A stretch of DNA of 47,404 nt from a virus: positions 1-47,404 of the IMG/VR virus record IMGVR_UViG_3300037247_000717. One strand, 5' to 3'. The stretch's first letter is position 1; each line of letters begins with the position of its first letter. Made by a program: the position numbers and the translations under genes. Shown here piece by piece: positions 18,021-39,908 of this stretch. The notes under the pieces were generated by a model. That model worked only from the letters and a program-made list of their open reading frames with translations. It was not told the origin of the DNA and searched no databases.

Positions 18021-18596
18021 CTACAGCGCCCTGCCAATCACCAGCGCCTCTTCGGCATCGCCCATATCAATCTCAGGGTAATGCCACGCGTGGCCAGTCA
18101 GGTCTATCCGCAAAACCGAGCTGCCATTCGTGACGACGGCCACTTCGTAGGGCGCCAGCGCGTTGGTGATGGTCAGCGTATCCGCCTCGAAATACGTGGT
18201 CCCGGTCGCCAGACTAGTCGGATGGGTGCCAGTCTCCCTGGCCCCCAAGATAACTGCCACATCCATCAACGGCAGACCGTGGCCGTTCTCCGGCCAGGCA
18301 ATAATGCGAGCTGCATATGTGAGGTCTGCGACCGTGGTGCCGAAGAACCGATAATTCCACATCAACGCCCCGCCGATAGGCTGTGGCCCACCGATAGTCG
18401 CATTCCAGTCCGGCTTATTGGAGAAGGCGAAGTCAGTGATGGCACTATCGTCGGTCGTCACCCCCATGCGCAGGGCCAACGGGACCATTATAATATCGCG
18501 AAGTAGTCCACCGGTTCCGGCCGTGTTACCCCGGCTCGGTACCGGGCTCTTCTGCATCGACCGGGCTATCTGGCTGCTCAGACCCTCTAGTGGCAT
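18021..18596 (-). CDS. Virion surface-block protein of unknown function
   Basis: 191 residues. The ATG has a strong GAGGAG upstream even though that site lies inside the end of the radical SAM gene (71-base overlap). The C-terminal 100 residues look beta-rich (FEADTLTITNALAPYEVAVVTNGSSVLRIDLTGHAWHYPEIDMG). It is the first gene of the surface-protein block and immediately follows the modification cassette. Family not recognised. Confidence 0.65.
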   Translation of the reverse strand: MPLEGLSSQIARSMQKSPVPSRGNTAGTGGLLRDIIMVPLALRMGVTTDDSAITDFAFSNKPDWNATIGGPQPIGGALMWNYRFFGTTVADLTYAARIIAWPENGHGLPLMDVAVILGARETGTHPTSLATGTTYFEADTLTITNALAPYEVAVVTNGSSVLRIDLTGHAWHYPEIDMGDAEEALVIGRAL

Positions 18597-19755
18597 GATT
18601 CAGCTCCTCAAAATGGCACACGTCAGTAATGGCCGGACCGTCATACGGCACCAGCTCATCAAGGCCGAAACGCTTCTGATACTGAGGCGTCGGCCCCTCG
18701 CAAATGGGTCGTAGTGCGCAGTCATCGCACTTTTCATTGGCCCTATCGCGAGCGATCCGGTCACATATCTGGCGGCGGAACGGCGCCCGCTGGTCACTCG
18801 GCGGCGCCGGTAGACGCTGAGTTGATTCTAAGGCCCACTCCCAGGGATCGTGCTGACCCTGGTAAAAGCCAATACAGTTTCGCTCAAACCCGCCCGTTTT
18901 AGCAACACAAAACGGGAAATACCTGACGTTTACTTCCCAACCCTTTGCCTCTAAAGCACTTATGGCAGCCGCCAGGGGACCAACCAAGTCCTTGCCCTGA
19001 GCCTGAAAGTCGATGACCTCCTTGCCGTCCCAGGCGTGGAAGGGGTTGAACTGTATGAAGTTACAGACAGTGGGCGGGAAGTTGTCGGCCAGAAACCGGC
19101 CATATGCCGGTAGGCATTCCAGGTTGGTCGAGGTCAGCGTGCAGTTGAAACGGACTGGCTGGACGCACTTCTGGGCTCCGATAACAGTACGACTGAATGG
19201 GTCATGCGCGAGTGCATGACCTGGTTCTGCTTTTCCCTTTCGACGAACAAGGTCGTTGTGTTCTTTTTCCAAGCCGTGTAGCGAGACCAACCAATCATCC
19301 AGCCCGGCATCCTCGATGCGAACTGTGTAGCTCTCCTTGCCCAATCGTTGCCCATGCGTGATGACCGTGGGAGCCAGCCCGATATTCGCACAATGCCGCA
19401 CCAGCTCCGGCAACTGGTCGAAGATGGTCGGCTCACCCCCGCTGATATCGGTAGCGGTCAAACCATAGTACCAGCACTGCCGATTGGCGATCATCATCAT
19501 GGTCGGCAGGTCGTAGAACATCTTATCAGGCAGGGTGGCGTAGTAGCAGAACTCGCAGTCCATATCACAAGGCCCACCGGCATTGCCCATGAACAGCCAG
19601 CCGCGCTCGGTCGGTTCACCGTGAGGGCGGAGAACGGGTCGCCCGCTTGCGGGTTTTTGCCTTTTTGCACTTGGCGACTTTTTTCGTTTCGGCTTTTTGT
19701 GGACCCTTGGCTTGCCGCCTGAAGTGGCGCGGGTCGTCGATGATTTCGCCGTCAT
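18526..19755 (-). CDS. Radical SAM enzyme (second of two)
   Basis: 409 residues from the ATG at 19755, which has GGAG five bases upstream; an in-frame ATG at 19590 would avoid the overlap with the upstream gene but lacks a ribosome site. The cluster motif is C-x3-C-x2-C (CDMDCEFCYYA; cysteines at 63, 67 and 70 of this start), followed by DISGGEPT, the SAM-binding GGE. A C-terminal cysteine set (CIGFY..., KCDDCALRPICEG) looks like a SPASM-type auxiliary cluster region. Such enzymes use a 4Fe-4S cluster and SAM to make a radical, often on peptides or sugars. The basic 50-residue N-terminal extension overlaps the end of the upstream radical SAM gene in another frame. Substrate unknown. Confidence 0.82.
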   Translation of the reverse strand: MTAKSSTTRATSGGKPRVHKKPKRKKSPSAKRQKPASGRPVLRPHGEPTERGWLFMGNAGGPCDMDCEFCYYATLPDKMFYDLPTMMMIANRQCWYYGLTATDISGGEPTIFDQLPELVRHCANIGLAPTVITHGQRLGKESYTVRIEDAGLDDWLVSLHGLEKEHNDLVRRKGKAEPGHALAHDPFSRTVIGAQKCVQPVRFNCTLTSTNLECLPAYGRFLADNFPPTVCNFIQFNPFHAWDGKEVIDFQAQGKDLVGPLAAAISALEAKGWEVNVRYFPFCVAKTGGFERNCIGFYQGQHDPWEWALESTQRLPAPPSDQRAPFRRQICDRIARDRANEKCDDCALRPICEGPTPQYQKRFGLDELVPYDGPAITDVCHFEELNHATRGSEQPDSPVDAEEPGTEPG

Positions 19756-20776
19756 AGGACTCCGGCCTCCATTTGGGGTGTATCTCGACATATATCTTGC
19801 TGCTGCCGTCACATATGTTCACCAATGAACACTTCTCGCATTCCGGGTGGCGATGACCGCAGCCGATGCTATTTCGCAGGCTCCAGAAATTGAAGAAGGC
19901 GTGGGCGAAGCTCTCCGCCCATACCCCGGAGCGCGCAGCCTGTAGCCATAAATCCATAATCGTTGCATTGGGCACATTTGCATAGGCCCGCACGTCCCAC
20001 TCCAGTGGATCGTAGACGATCTGCGGATAATTGGTAACATGTGATTCGAGCCCTTTATACCCACAGAACGGCACATATCGCAGGTTGGTGGTGATGCCTG
20101 CCTTCTCGTAGGTCTCGACGAACTCGCGCACGTAGGGTAGGGCCACGTCATGCCTGACCACCAACTCCGATGCCTGCGGCGCCCGTTGCAGCCAACCGGC
20201 CAGCGGATTGAAGTTGATGATATTATGGTTGGTCGGTGGATGTTGCAGGTAGGCCAGATAGCCAGCCAGTTCCGGCAATCCCGGCGCCGACAGGGCAGTC
20301 AAGACAGTATTGGCCCGCCAGGACTTCTTCATAGCTGTCAGGGCTTGAATCAACCGCGACCACGCGTCGTCGGCCGGTTGCCGGGTCATTGCCCCGTGGG
20401 TCTCTTTGGTGCCGTGGATACTGACCAGCCATTCGGCAACACCCGCCTTTTCCAACGCCTCCACCTTCTGCGGCCTGACCAGCCCGTGGGTTATCAGGCA
20501 CAGGGGGATGCCCAGTTCAGCCGCGTACTCCGCTATCTCGATGATGTCCGGGTGCAGGGTGGGCTCGCCGCCGGTGAAGTCGCACATGGTCAAGTCGAAG
20601 TCTTTACGGAAGCGCTTGAGCCGAACCTTGATTTCAGCAACCGGCATCCACTTCCGCGCCTTGCGATCCTCGAACCGATGGTAGCACATCAGGCAGTCCA
20701 GGTCGCAGCGATGGCCCACGTCGATACAGCCGCGTCTGGTTACACCGTCAAGATCGTTCAGGTCAGATAAGTCCAT
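19616..20776 (-). CDS. Radical SAM enzyme (first of two)
   Basis: 386 residues. Residues 24, 28 and 31 form the C-x3-C-x2-C motif (CDLDCLMCYHR), followed by CDFTGGEPTLHP (GGE motif) and a C-terminal cysteine set (CGHRHPECEKCSLVNICDG) like SPASM-family auxiliary cluster ligands. The tail is a lysine/arginine-rich extension. It resembles its downstream neighbour in the core (both have a SIHG/SLHG segment after the GGE and an NFNP segment), so the pair may be paralogues. Its start overlaps the stop of the sulfotransferase-like gene by 14 bases. Likely modifies a peptide, sugar or cofactor; target unknown. Confidence 0.85.
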   Translation of the reverse strand: MDLSDLNDLDGVTRRGCIDVGHRCDLDCLMCYHRFEDRKARKWMPVAEIKVRLKRFRKDFDLTMCDFTGGEPTLHPDIIEIAEYAAELGIPLCLITHGLVRPQKVEALEKAGVAEWLVSIHGTKETHGAMTRQPADDAWSRLIQALTAMKKSWRANTVLTALSAPGLPELAGYLAYLQHPPTNHNIINFNPLAGWLQRAPQASELVVRHDVALPYVREFVETYEKAGITTNLRYVPFCGYKGLESHVTNYPQIVYDPLEWDVRAYANVPNATIMDLWLQAARSGVWAESFAHAFFNFWSLRNSIGCGHRHPECEKCSLVNICDGSSKIYVEIHPKWRPESYDGEIIDDPRHFRRQAKGPQKAETKKVAKCKKAKTRKRATRSPPSR

Positions 20777-33513: not shown

Positions 33514-33749
33514 ACCTTGGCCTTTTCGACGGCGATTAGAGCCGTCAGCAATCCGAAACCAGCTAGTATTCCGTCGATTGCAGCAGCGTCGTCGTCACCG
33601 TTGCTGGCCTCAGCGTATTGGGTCAACAATGAATTGAGACTCTCAATCGTGTTGTTCTGGATAAAACGCTTAACATCTTCTTGCGCCTGGTCATGTTGTC
33701 GTTCTAGTAGGATCAGAAATACCTTGTCATCACTGTCGGGATCACTCAT
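33504..33749 (-). CDS. Small acidic protein, unknown
   Basis: 81 residues, with an acidic start (MSDPDSDDKVFLILLERQHDQAQEDVKRFIQ) and a hydrophobic C-terminal helix (AIDGILAGFGLLTALIAVEKA). It overlaps the methyltransferase stop by eight bases. The end could be a membrane helix. Function unknown. Confidence 0.6.
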   Translation of the reverse strand: MSDPDSDDKVFLILLERQHDQAQEDVKRFIQNNTIESLNSLLTQYAEASNGDDDAAAIDGILAGFGLLTALIAVEKAKVAP

Positions 33750-34473
33750 TTCTGTTTATTCCTTCCAACAACTCCCATGCTGCTCTAACCACTGCCGGAA
33801 CCTGCCCGTTGCCAAGGGCTCTAAGTCGGTCCACCCTAAAGGCCACCCCATCAGCCACTCGCGGAATTGCGGTGACTTCTCTAGGTCGCGGCGGCCAAGC
33901 GCCACACACTGATCTTCTAATTTCCGCAGCCCGCCGCCCGGTGTATGTCGTTCTGCTTGCCCGCCGCCCGTTGGCGTCTTGGGCGTCTGCCATAACCCAG
34001 AGCCGGTCTCGCCGGTGAGTAGCACCGACGGCGGACGCTGGTACACAATCCCACGGTCCATCAAACCCGCTCTCGGCCAAGTCGCCGAGTATGGTTCCGT
34101 AGTATTGGTCAGCAAGGAGAGCTGGTACGTTCTCCAACAGGCAGTATCGCGGTCCCACTTCGCGAATGATCCGGATGGTGTCGGGCCACAGGTTGCGGTC
34201 GTCGGCTTCGCCTTGCTGCTTCCCAGCGACACTCCAGGGCTGACACGGGAATCCAGCAGTAACGACATCCACTTTGCCACGCCATCCGCTGCCGTCGAAG
34301 GTTCGTATGTCATCCCAGATAGGGAACGGCGGTAGGAACCCTTCTTCCTGGCGTCGAAGCAAGACCTCTCGACAGTACGGATCAAGTTCAACCGCGCACA
34401 CTGTTTGGAATCCAAGCAGCCGCGCTCCAAGAAGTCCGCCACCAGCGCCTGTGAACAGTGCCAGCTCATTCAT
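33742..34473 (-). CDS. DNA cytosine-5 methyltransferase
   Basis: 243 residues. Motif I LFTGAGGG at 6-13, motif IV GFPCQPWS with the catalytic cysteine at 77, motif VI ENV at 114-116, motif VIII-like THRRDRLW and motif X ALGNGQVP near the C-terminus are all present. The protein is shorter than typical cytosine methyltransferases, with a small recognition region. Likely protects phage DNA from restriction. A second reading frame in the same stretch also looks conserved (see the separate entry). Confidence 0.9.
   Translation of the reverse strand: MNELALFTGAGGGLLGARLLGFQTVCAVELDPYCREVLLRRQEEGFLPPFPIWDDIRTFDGSGWRGKVDVVTAGFPCQPWSVAGKQQGEADDRNLWPDTIRIIREVGPRYCLLENVPALLADQYYGTILGDLAESGFDGPWDCVPASAVGATHRRDRLWVMADAQDANGRRASRTTYTGRRAAEIRRSVCGAWPPRPREVTAIPRVADGVAFRVDRLRALGNGQVPAVVRAAWELLEGINRNE
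33756..34091 (-). other. Second conserved-looking reading frame inside the methyltransferase gene
   Basis: In the frame shifted by one base the last 111 residues read YSATWPRAGLMDRGIVYQRPP, then TGETGSGLWQTP and ending FREWLMGWPLGWTDLEPLATG. These are segments I know from stand-alone or fused phage proteins (TWPRSGM, TGSGLWPTP, EWLMGFPIGWTDLE). They lie exactly across the C-terminal methyltransferase motifs. Expression would need an internal start or frameshift; I do not see a ribosome site for it. Confidence 0.4.
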
Positions 34474-36525: not shown

Positions 36526-37291
36526 CGTTATCCTCCTGGCCCATACAGTAGGCCGTCGTCAGTTCGGTTATCCGCCGGTGGATACGCTCGTCGAAGAATT
36601 CAGCCATGTACTCCACAGGCAGATTGGCGCTCAGGTCGGTGTGAACACCACACTCATATCTGCCATTCAATACGTCGTAGGTGATGTTCGCCGCCACTGC
36701 CTGCTGGCCTTTACTCAGGTCAGCCAACCCTGCTGCCAGGTCGTCTATGGCCAGGTAGTCCAGCTCGACCAGGCTGCGGACCACGCTGGACTCGGCCTGG
36801 TCGTTCTTGCCCCAGGTCGCTGTCACCTCCTGGCACATAGCCCGCCAGTTGACCAGCCGAGCCGTAAAGCCCCGTCTTGCAGCCGCCAGCGTCCGAGCAC
36901 ACAACATGTGGGTTTTGTGACAGCCCACCGGCCCCCAGAAATACAATGGCCCCTGACCGTGTTCGATGATTAGAGCCGACCAATGACGGTTCAGCCCGTG
37001 GTCGTGGAAGCTTGGCGGCCGACCATGCCGCCAGAAACCTTTATTGACGCCCACCTGCTGGCAGAGGCGGGCCAGCAGTGGGGCCATAGCTGATGGTGCG
37101 GTCAGAGCCACAGTCCATTCATTTCGGCGCGTAGCCCGTTCCGTGCATGTCTCACAGACCTTAATCCCGGAGCGAGGGGCTTCTGGATGTGTCAGCCCGC
37201 AGCCTGGACACAACGGCCAGAAGTTCAGGCTACCGAAGACGCCCACGTTTTGCTTTGCTACCATCCCAACTTCCGCGTTGATTCTGGTCAT
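36512..37291 (-). CDS. DnaC/IstB-like helicase loader ATPase
   Basis: 259 residues from the ATG at 37291 (AAGGGG six bases upstream; GTG at 37297 possible). An N-terminal zinc finger (CPGCG, KVCETC) is followed by an AAA+ domain: Walker A region GPVGCHKTH, in which the usual G before K is replaced by H, Walker B YLAIDDLA, and an RIHRRI sensor-like arginine region near the end. This is the build of phage helicase loaders. It follows the initiator-like gene, as in many phage replication modules. Confidence 0.75.
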   Translation of the reverse strand: MTRINAEVGMVAKQNVGVFGSLNFWPLCPGCGLTHPEAPRSGIKVCETCTERATRRNEWTVALTAPSAMAPLLARLCQQVGVNKGFWRHGRPPSFHDHGLNRHWSALIIEHGQGPLYFWGPVGCHKTHMLCARTLAAARRGFTARLVNWRAMCQEVTATWGKNDQAESSVVRSLVELDYLAIDDLAAGLADLSKGQQAVAANITYDVLNGRYECGVHTDLSANLPVEYMAEFFDERIHRRITELTTAYCMGQEDNDGKK

Positions 37292-38027
37292 GTCCACCCC
37301 TTGCTATCAGTTCCGCCAGGCATCCCGGCATCACGCTCAGCTTGTGGCCTTGCTTGGCTGCCCAGCCTTCTAGCTCCAGGTAGGCGTCCACAAAGCCCTT
37401 GGCAGTGATCAGGTCGTCACCTGCCGCTCGCAGGACCGCTTGAACTGCCCTGGCGTCCTTGCCGCCCTCGTGAGGATAGCCTTGATCATCGTGCTTGGTC
37501 TTCCAGGCTTTGCAGAAGTAGTCCGTCAGGGGTTTGTAGTTCGGGTTGGTCTTCTGCTTCTTGGAAGATGCGTCGGGGCGCGCAGCGCCCTTCTTAGTTC
37601 TTGTTCTTAACTTGTTCTTACTGTTACGTCCCCCCGTGTCACCCAGTTGGGCACATTTTTGGGCTGAGTCCAACGTTGGACTGAGCCCAGATTGGCTCGT
37701 GCCAGATTGACCCCTGTTACTGGGCCCAGATTGGACCCTGTTAGCGAACAAGCCGAGTGGCCCGCCCTGCCACTCGTAAACTGCTGCTTGGTGGTCGCGA
37801 CGGCCCTCACTGACTAGGCGAAACCAGCCGGCCAATATCAGTTCAGCCACAGCCCGCCGAACCGTATTGCGACCCAGCCCTGTCTCTCGTTGAAGCTGGT
37901 AGATTGAGATCGTGACCATATTGCCCTTGCCCTGGCCGACATCCAGCATGGCCCAGGCTACCAGCTTGGCCCTGGCTTGCAGGTCGGTGGCCCGCCGGAT
38001 CGGCTTACCGTCCTTGATGGGGTTCAT
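37230..38027 (-). CDS. Helix-turn-helix replication initiator-like protein
   Basis: 265 residues; GAGGTTCCTGA before the ATG. The N-terminus holds a winged helix-turn-helix (ISIYQLQRETGLGRNTVRRAVAELILAGWFRLVSEG), then a basic low-complexity linker (about 100-165) and a C-terminal domain (YKPLTDYFCKAWKTKHDDQGYPHEGGKDARAVQAVLRAAG). This arrangement is like DnaD-type or phage O-type initiators. It overlaps the loader gene by about 62 bases. The origin may lie in this gene, but I could not identify iterons. Confidence 0.7.
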   Translation of the reverse strand: MNPIKDGKPIRRATDLQARAKLVAWAMLDVGQGKGNMVTISIYQLQRETGLGRNTVRRAVAELILAGWFRLVSEGRRDHQAAVYEWQGGPLGLFANRVQSGPSNRGQSGTSQSGLSPTLDSAQKCAQLGDTGGRNSKNKLRTRTKKGAARPDASSKKQKTNPNYKPLTDYFCKAWKTKHDDQGYPHEGGKDARAVQAVLRAAGDDLITAKGFVDAYLELEGWAAKQGHKLSVMPGCLAELIARGGHDQNQRGSWDGSKAKRGRLR

Positions 38028-38053: not shown

Positions 38054-38917
38054 CTATGCAACGTGTCGGTGCCCGCCCTTAGCTTCGTGCCATTCTTCGG
38101 CAACCGGCAGACCCTCAAGCGCCCGCCATGCCTTGTGCAAGTCTACCAGGAACCGCTTGACCATGTACCGGATGGCCATGTTGTGCCGATGACCCTTGCT
38201 CACGTCCTTGTAGGTGTCGTGGTGCTCCAGGCGGTGCTTGTAGTCGTCGTAGTGGTCGCGATAGGGGCTCTTGGACCGCAGGAACGACCCGCCCAACACG
38301 CCCAGCAGCTTGGTCTTCAAGAATGGGTTGAAGGTGATGCTCTTGCGGGTCGCTGGCTTGCCGTCCTTATCCTCGTAGTCCACGTCAATCAGGTGCTCGG
38401 CACGTCGGCTGCGCCCTTGGCCGTCCTTAGCTACGTCCAGCCCTGCATACTTCCACAGACTCGACGGGTAGCGGGCGCGGTGGATGTCGATTTCGCTGAT
38501 AATCACCCCAGCCATCGCCGGGCCAACACCCTTGACGCCCTCCAAGAACTTGGTGTAGAGCGGAAAGCCCTTGAGGATATGCCCCAGCCGCTTGAAGTGT
38601 GTCGCTTCGGATTCTTCCAGCGAAACGTACTGGGCCAACAGGCATAGCTCGGTGTAGGTGCTGATTACCTCGTCGCCCTCGAAGTCCAATGGGCGGGGAA
38701 AGGTCTTGACACCATCGGTCAGCTTCTTGAATCGCATCCGCAGGTCCGCCAGCAGCCGTTTGGCTTCGGCGTCGAGTTCGCGTTCAGGCTTAGACGGCTT
38801 CTGGCCTAGTTTGGCCTTGAAGTTGGCGACGATACGGTTGCCCATTTGAATACGGAGCTTCTGGATGTCGTAAGCTCCCCGTACTACTGTCTTTAACTGC
38901 GCTTTGTCATTCTGCAT
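38054..38917 (-). CDS. tas: Tas protein of a TIGR-Tas system, nuclease-less (TasA-like)
   Basis: 287 residues from the ATG at 38917. A start 24 codons upstream exists, but those codons are array units and the true ATG has AGAGAGGAG six bases upstream. The order is a basic helical N-terminus (KTVVRGAYDIQKLRIQMGNR), a helical middle, a helix-hairpin-helix GVKGVGPAMAGVIISEI at 127-143, then LWKYAGLD, a basic insert and a final HNMAIRYMVKRFLVDLHKAW helix at 245-264. The helix-hairpin-helix/YAGL/final-helix order is that of the C-terminal region of IS110-family transposases, related to the Nop fold of box C/D proteins. No RuvC-like DEDD domain and no HNH are seen. With the 36-bp array directly upstream it fits Tas proteins: an RNA-guided DNA binder. 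A simple database hit would call it an IS110 transposase. Confidence 0.88.
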   Translation of the reverse strand: MQNDKAQLKTVVRGAYDIQKLRIQMGNRIVANFKAKLGQKPSKPERELDAEAKRLLADLRMRFKKLTDGVKTFPRPLDFEGDEVISTYTELCLLAQYVSLEESEATHFKRLGHILKGFPLYTKFLEGVKGVGPAMAGVIISEIDIHRARYPSSLWKYAGLDVAKDGQGRSRRAEHLIDVDYEDKDGKPATRKSITFNPFLKTKLLGVLGGSFLRSKSPYRDHYDDYKHRLEHHDTYKDVSKGHRHNMAIRYMVKRFLVDLHKAWRALEGLPVAEEWHEAKGGHRHVA

Positions 38918-39510
38918 GGCACGCTCCTCTCTATTGGGTTTCTCGTAATCAATGGCACGCTTAGGGAGTCTGGTTTTATCTGGCTCCATGGCCCGCTTGC
39001 TAACAGTGGGTTTCTAGCGGCGGGTGGCCCGCTCGTGCGGTCTGGGTTACTGTTTTACAATGACACGCTCCTATATTTTGGGTTCCTAACATGTACTGGC
39101 TCGCTTCGATAGTCTGGGTTTCTCCACGACATTGACTCACTTGCGGTCGTTGGGTTTCTGCCTGTGTTTGGCCCGCTTTGACGCATTGGGTTTCTGATCT
39201 TAACTGGCTCGCTCCTCGTATTTGGGTTACTTCGGTAGCCTGGCTCGCTTCGTGCCCACGGGTTTCTATTTGGCCATGGCCCGCTTGTTGACAATGGGTT
39301 TCTAGCCTTGCTTGGCCCGCTCACCTACACTGGGTTACTCTCGTCTTTTGGCTCGCTTTCAGGGTTTGGGTTTCTTCCATGCTGTGGCTCGCTCGGTGAT
39401 CTTGGGTTTCTTACGGGATATGGCCCGCTTGTCGTGTCTGGGTTACTCATATTATCTGGCTCGCTTGACACGTTTGGGTTCCTAGTTTACATTGACCCGC
39501 TTGTTCCGCC
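38917..39510 (-). repeat. TIGR array: 36-bp units with two repeats and two spacers
   Basis: Seventeen copies of a 9-bp repeat (minus AGCGRGCCA; plus TGGCYCGCT) occur at exactly 36-bp spacing, at 38917, 38953, 38989, 39025 and so on to 39493. Nine bases after each lies a second 9-bp repeat (minus AGNAACCCA; plus TGGGTTNCT). Both gaps are 9 bases and differ from unit to unit, giving 33 spacers. The second repeat is degraded in unit 38953 (plus TGGTTTTAT) and absent after 39502. Repeats vary at one or two fixed positions. The array starts three bases after the stop of the gene at 39513 and ends in the tas start codon, so it is probably transcribed with tas from the minus strand. Confidence 0.93.
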
Positions 39511-39512
39511 AT

Positions 39513-39908
39513 TCATGTAACATGGGTCAGGTTGTAAGTTTCCGTCATCACCCTCGCACAACCGTCACACTTCACTTGTTGCAGCCGCGTACCAACCCCG
39601 TAGGTAGCGCCGAAATTAATAATCCGAGGGGATTGGCAATGTGGACAGTGGGCGCCATGATCTTTAACATAGTCCTCTACCTGTTTTGGTGTCAGTGTCA
39701 TCGGTTTGCTCCTCTCTGCCTTGGCTTTATCGAGGATGGGGTTGACTAGCTTCAGCAGGATGGCCGCTTCGGTTGGCATTTGCTCGTGCTTCTGCATGTC
39801 TGTTGCGTGGTTATGAATTGCCTTGCACACCCCCACCAGCGCGGCGTTGAGGAAGTGCAGGTGGGCAATTTCAGCTAGAAGATCATGGAAACTTCGTTCG
39901 CTCATCAT
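39513..39908 (-). CDS. Two small phage genes fused in frame: helical domain plus zinc ribbon
   Basis: 131 residues. The first 69 form a helical domain (SFHDLLAEIAHLHFLNAALVGVCKAIHNHA). Residue 70 is a methionine (ATG at 39702-39700) with AGAGAGGAG eight bases upstream, and from there the protein is a zinc ribbon (TPKQVEDYVKDHGAHCPHC..., VKCDGC) related to the gene at 30803-31015. No stop separates them, so a fusion and a free zinc-ribbon product are both possible. The stop lies just before the array. Confidence 0.65.
   Translation of the reverse strand: MMSERSFHDLLAEIAHLHFLNAALVGVCKAIHNHATDMQKHEQMPTEAAILLKLVNPILDKAKAERSKPMTLTPKQVEDYVKDHGAHCPHCQSPRIINFGATYGVGTRLQQVKCDGCARVMTETYNLTHVT

What the first reader, a model, noticed from the sequence alone, without database searches (positions are those of the whole stretch)
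38917..39510. Exact 36-bp arithmetic and strand logic of the array
Every first-type repeat starts exactly 36 bases after the previous one from 38917 to 39493, with both repeats and both spacers exactly 9 bases. The two repeats share ends (AG...CCA on the minus strand), giving a pseudo-symmetric unit. Degeneration is confined to the tas-proximal end (unit 38953) and the loss of the second repeat at the distal end, which shows where units decay. One fixed repeat position varies (A, C or T) independently of the spacers.
Basis: seen in the sequence. Interest (0 to 1): 0.75.

Follow-up and report, generated by a model that had tools for sequence, protein, structure and literature searches.

The report
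Phage TIGR guide array beside tasA
A bacterial virus carries a TIGR-Tas system: sixteen 36-letter units that should be cut into small double-guide RNAs for one partner protein; the kind was described in 2025, but relatives compared here show how such arrays change (whole units swapped inside, not added at one end).

Summary
The arithmetic is real. On the minus strand, 17 edge repeats (AGCGNGYCA) start every 36 bases from 38917 to 39493 and alternate with 16 loop repeats (AGNAACCCA) and 9-nt spacers. It is a TIGR array with its tasA gene (38054-38917), a new member of the TIGR-Tas kind (Faure 2025). The protein matches TasH and TasR by sequence and fold, without a nuclease.

Two other loci share this junction, so tigRNA processing could curb tasA translation (inferred). 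(2) In 1,663 related units, the half-edges at the two ends of one mature tigRNA covary. (3) In relatives, arrays turn over by whole units at internal sites, order mostly kept, neither end favoured. Shared guides fall from 75% to 4% as tas identity falls from 99% to 80-85%. The window (nearest tas 68%) shares none.

Decay is not confined to the tas end, and nothing is lost at the distal end. Natural targets remain unproven; a hint that some relatives' guides match homing-endonuclease genes is weak, and its supporting periodicity test failed replication.

The parts
38917..39501 (-). TIGR array: 17 edge repeats and 16 loop repeats of 9 nt, 32 spacers of 9 nt, 16 units of 36 nt, read 39501 to 38917
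   Evidence: direct reading of all units; pattern 13 matches against 0 in shuffles
38054..38917 (-). tasA: 287-aa Nop-domain Tas protein without nuclease domain
   Evidence: PDB sequence hits TasR E 2.6e-13 and TasH 4e-8; fold search, TasH and TasR are the top 11; no nuclease in Pfam
38917..38925 (-). last edge repeat AGCGTGCCA; its final A is the A of the tasA ATG
   Evidence: sequence; same junction in L138 and L122
38924..38932 (-). Shine-Dalgarno AGAGAGGAG of tasA, made of the end of the last spacer and the AG of the last edge repeat
   Evidence: sequence, 6 nt before the ATG; homologues align from this start
38971..38979 (-). degenerate loop repeat ATAAAACCA; the box-D G is lost, so unit 15 is probably inactive
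39259..39267 (-). loop repeat AGAAACCCG with a changed box C (unit 7)
39493..39501 (-). first edge repeat AGCGGGTCA, 11 nt after the stop codon of the upstream gene
39513..39908 (-). upstream gene on the same strand, probably the same transcript (131 aa, function unknown)
   Evidence: open frame; no terminator-like site between it and tasA
37230..38027 (-). downstream gene: O-like replication initiator
   Evidence: PHROG match

Best explanation
This is a phage-borne TIGR-TasA system. The array and tasA are read together from the minus strand. The transcript is cut within each edge repeat into about sixteen 36-nt tigRNAs of the form half edge - spacer A - loop - spacer B - half edge. The two half edges pair with each other (positions 2-7 and 3-6), and a TasA dimer holds the C and D boxes of edge and loop. 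Spacers A and B then pair with opposite strands of a DNA target of the form spacer B, 0-2 nt, reverse complement of spacer A. TasA has no nuclease, so it most likely unwinds and bends the target and blocks transcription or replication of competing mobile DNA, or regulates it. The guide set is renewed quickly by gain, loss and duplication of whole units inside the array. Shown here: the anatomy, the protein family, half-edge covariation and unit turnover in relatives. Inferred from the family: processing, loading, DNA binding. Not shown: targets and biological role.
For: Exact 36-nt dual-repeat array. TasA matches solved TasR and TasH by sequence and fold. Half edges of one mature unit pair in 1653 and 1648 of 1663 related units, against 1631.5 +/- 2.0 and 1635.8 +/- 2.2 in within-array shuffles; all 32 such pairs form in the window. 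Arrays lie on the tas strand at all 104 tas genes examined. Published behaviour of TasA, TasH and TasR (PMC12045711). Turnover by whole units in relatives.
Against: No RNA or binding data for this locus. No target found for any window guide: its own genome gives nothing beyond shuffled guides. Unlike the typical arrays of the paper, this one has full edge repeats at both ends and no terminator.
Confidence: 0.88

Rival explanations
1. A TIGR-Tas relic: the array is decaying and no longer makes functional guides.
For: Loop of unit 15 lacks the box-D G, loop of unit 7 has a changed box C.
Against: All 32 half-edge pairs and 15 of 16 loop pairs are kept; tasA is a full open frame with a good Shine-Dalgarno and intact conserved motifs.
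Confidence: 0.06
2. An ordinary tandem repeat or a repetitive protein-coding stretch (36 bases = 12 codons).
For: The period is a multiple of three; short open stretches exist (89 aa on the minus strand, 70 aa on the plus strand).
Against: No frame is open through the array. Spacers are unrelated while the boxes are fixed. Half-edge covariation is RNA-like. Relatives gain and lose whole units with unrelated spacers.
Confidence: 0.01
3. Same system, but TasA serves the phage itself (regulation of its own genome or help to recombination) rather than acting on other mobile DNA.
For: tasA sits in the replication and recombination gene block; the discovery paper suggests bending or integrase help as possible roles.
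Against: No match of window guides to the own genome beyond chance; guides turn over far faster than tas, which fits a moving target better than fixed own sites.
Confidence: 0.25

Closest known systems
TIGR-Tas, TasA type (Faure et al. 2025, PMC12045711)
   Same: Nop-domain protein next to alternating edge and loop repeats of about 9 nt with 9-nt spacers, 36-nt unit, shared box C/D ends, in a tailed phage
   Different: Array upstream of tasA with a full edge repeat at each end, the last one overlapping the tasA start codon; no terminator; box D reads AG where TasR has UG
IS110 recombinase with bridge RNA
   Same: Nop-like RNA-binding domain (Transposase_20), next best folds after Tas
   Different: No nuclease/recombinase domain found, a multi-unit array instead of one bridge RNA
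Box C/D snoRNP (Nop5)
   Same: Nop fold, paired C and D boxes holding two guides
   Different: DNA-targeting relatives, no L7Ae k-turn; weak fold match only
CRISPR arrays
   Same: Works like a stored library of guides that changes fast between relatives
   Different: Two alternating short repeats, two spacers per guide, no adaptation genes seen beside it, turnover without polarity instead of growth at the leader end

Membership tests
TIGR-Tas | Nop-domain Tas protein encoded next to the array | tested here: met
TIGR-Tas | Two distinct alternating 8-12-nt repeats with 9-nt spacers, several units | tested here: met
TIGR-Tas | Edge and loop repeats share box C and box D ends that pair | tested here: met
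   AG...CCA in both; pairing kept and covarying in relatives
TIGR-Tas | Truncated edge repeats at both ends and a terminator after the array (typical, not universal) | tested here: not met
   full edges at both ends, tasA follows directly, no terminator-like site; the paper calls this typical only, so membership stands
TIGR-Tas | Processing into 36-nt tigRNAs bound by Tas | not testable with these tools
   needs RNA sequencing; half-edge covariation in relatives agrees with it
TIGR-Tas | Tandem-spacer DNA targeting | tested here: inconclusive
   no target found for window guides; no excess in related loci
TasR or TasH | N-terminal RuvC or HNH nuclease | tested here: not met
   no nuclease in Pfam; hence TasA
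IS110 recombinase | N-terminal DEDD (RuvC-like) domain plus Transposase_20 | tested here: not met
   only Transposase_20 (weak) and HHH in Pfam; fold search ranks Tas proteins first
CRISPR | Single repeat type and adaptation genes, leader-end growth | tested here: not met
   two repeat types; internal turnover in relatives

The most novel reading that the evidence does not exclude
Phage TIGR-TasA arrays are fast-changing guide libraries whose unit of exchange is the processed 36-nt tigRNA, aimed at coding sequences of rival selfish elements such as homing endonuclease genes; in loci like this window, cutting of the last edge repeat also throttles tasA translation.
Probability: 0.1. Interest if true: 0.85.

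Novelty: new member of a known kind. Interest (0 to 1): 0.5.

Why it matters
The discovery paper names the origin, upkeep and expansion of TIGR arrays, and the role of nuclease-free TasA, as open questions. The comparison made here gives a first answer on upkeep: whole-unit turnover inside the array, no preferred end, guides lost within a few percent of tas divergence. It also gives comparative evidence, across many arrays, that the mature tigRNA ends pair across two edge repeats. The overlap of the last edge repeat with the tasA start codon suggests a simple, testable feedback.

Tried and rejected
(1) A single-protein search of viral contigs found no close relative of this TasA. (2) Matches of 1,015 and 2,195 guides in 2.0 and 2.4 Mb of related loci: no excess for the expected geometry at any gap. 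(3) Overlap of targets between different guides in shifted register: no difference between geometries. (4) Targets of the window guides in its own genome: one guide with 2 mismatches, about what shuffled guides give. (5) Codon periodicity of guide substitutions: significant in the first 78 clusters, 50 with two or more variable positions; absent in 14 new clusters; pooled values marginal. Kept only as a lead. (6) Guide matches inside 80 HNH genes: no overall excess at gap 2. (7) Seed conservation in drifting guides: substitution positions are even, no seed visible. (8) Array as coding sequence: no frame open throughout. (9) Decay from one end: degenerate units are spread inside 122 arrays (the terminal fifths are low by construction). 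(10) Many loci returned by the first loose pattern carried single-type GGN-like repeats with an 18-base period, probably coding repeats, and were left out.

Full report
What is there. On the minus strand between 39501 and 38917 lie 17 copies of AGCGNGYCA (edge) and 16 of AGNAACCCA (loop), alternating, each separated by exactly 9 bases; one loop is degenerate and one has a changed last base. A pattern of four such boxes matches 13 times there and never in 100 shuffles of the window. The array begins 11 nt after the stop codon of the upstream gene and ends inside the tasA start codon: the last edge repeat is AGCGTGCC followed by ATG. The Shine-Dalgarno AGAGAGGAG is made of the last spacer and the AG of that repeat. 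No terminator-like site lies between array and gene.

What the protein is. The 287-aa product matches the TIGR nucleases TasR (E 2.6e-13) and TasH (4e-8) in the PDB by sequence. The AlphaFold model (mean pLDDT 82) has TasH and TasR chains as its 11 best fold matches, followed by IS110 recombinases. Pfam shows only the IS110-type Transposase_20 domain and a sub-threshold HHH motif, and no nuclease. It is therefore TasA. The gene sits in a replication and recombination block of a tailed phage: an ATPase with a weak UvsX match, SSB, then array and tasA, then O-like initiator and DnaC-like loader. Portal and major head proteins and a weak terminase match lie elsewhere. The record is a 47,404-base viral contig.

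The repeats as RNA. The discovery paper reports that tigRNAs are cut in the middle of edge repeats and that the two halves pair in the TasR structure. I tested this on 1,663 units from dereplicated related arrays. The 3' half edge and the 5' half edge of the same mature unit form standard pairs at positions 3-6 in 1653 units (within-array shuffles 1631.5 +/- 2.0) and at positions 2-7 in 1648 (1635.8 +/- 2.2). Halves of one intact edge, or halves joined the wrong way, show a weaker excess or none. Whole-array variants such as AACGAGTCA (G2A with C7T) and AGTGAACCA (C3T with G6A) are compensatory. In the window all 32 pairs form, four of them as G-U wobbles.

How arrays change. Five scans of viral contigs and one of genome contigs brought the related loci; 236 of them hold a long tas match, some redundantly, and they give 2,363 distinct guides. 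Arrays lay on the strand of tas at all 104 tas genes examined. Close pairs keep guide order but differ by whole units inside: L078 and L178 differ by one internal 36-bp unit and one substitution. L245, L247 and L250 against L249 share the start of the array and a few later units but not most of the middle, although their TasA proteins are identical. Other groups show units duplicated in tandem, or in changed order. Unshared units have mean relative position 0.49, and the shared fraction is even along the array (pairs are not independent). The mean fraction of shared guides falls with tas nucleotide identity: 75% at 99% or more, 32% at 95-99%, 16% at 90-95%, 9% at 85-90%, 4% at 80-85%, 0.3% at 70-80%, none below 70%. 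The nearest tas to the window is 68% identical, and no window guide is shared. Hence the end that gains units cannot be read from the window itself; in the family neither end is favoured. Units duplicated within one array exist (46 pairs with at most 3 mismatches, 5.7 expected).

The start-codon junction. Two further loci, L138 and L122, have the same arrangement of Shine-Dalgarno, edge repeat and ATG. If the edge is cut in its middle, the Shine-Dalgarno is removed from the tasA message. That would be a feedback; it is inferred, not shown, and the paper does not mention it.

Targets. No target was found for window guides. One recurring guide of marine relatives encodes LAHxAYC with only synonymous variants, and its pattern hits an HNH homing endonuclease in frame; two other hits were antisense in unrelated frames. 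One guide of L161 encodes RIExLR, the HNH signature, scoring above all controls. But a general test of codon periodicity, strong at first, failed on new clusters, and matches are not enriched overall. The window guides show no such signal. I treat this as a lead only.

Verdict. The locus is a new member of TIGR-TasA. The value lies in the comparative results on array turnover and half-edge pairing, and in a testable overlap of array and start codon.

Noticed in passing
window 38054-38917: PHROG annotates this TasA family as 'transposase, integration and excision' (phrog_4285), so TIGR proteins in phages are probably widely misnamed.
   Followed up: no
window 33742-34473: Phage-encoded DNA methyltransferase.
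   Followed up: no
window 18526-20776: Two overlapping open frames with radical SAM matches in a phage genome.
   Followed up: no
L312 (minus strand, about 717-736) and guides of L227-L234: A recurring guide read as B-NN-rc(A) encodes LAHxAYC, a motif of HNH/AP2 homing endonucleases, with all variants synonymous.
   Followed up: partly
L161 and L453: Guides encoding RIExLR and YIExLR, the HNH signature.
   Followed up: partly
L128, L213 upstream of the tas match: Open frames read into tas with Cys-rich HNH-like N-termini, probably TasH, using the same AGCGAGCCA edge repeat as the TasA loci.
   Followed up: no
L301-L311: Relatives in genome collections occur only in draft genomes, nearly all metagenome-assembled, of very different phyla, so the host of the window phage stays unknown.
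   Followed up: no
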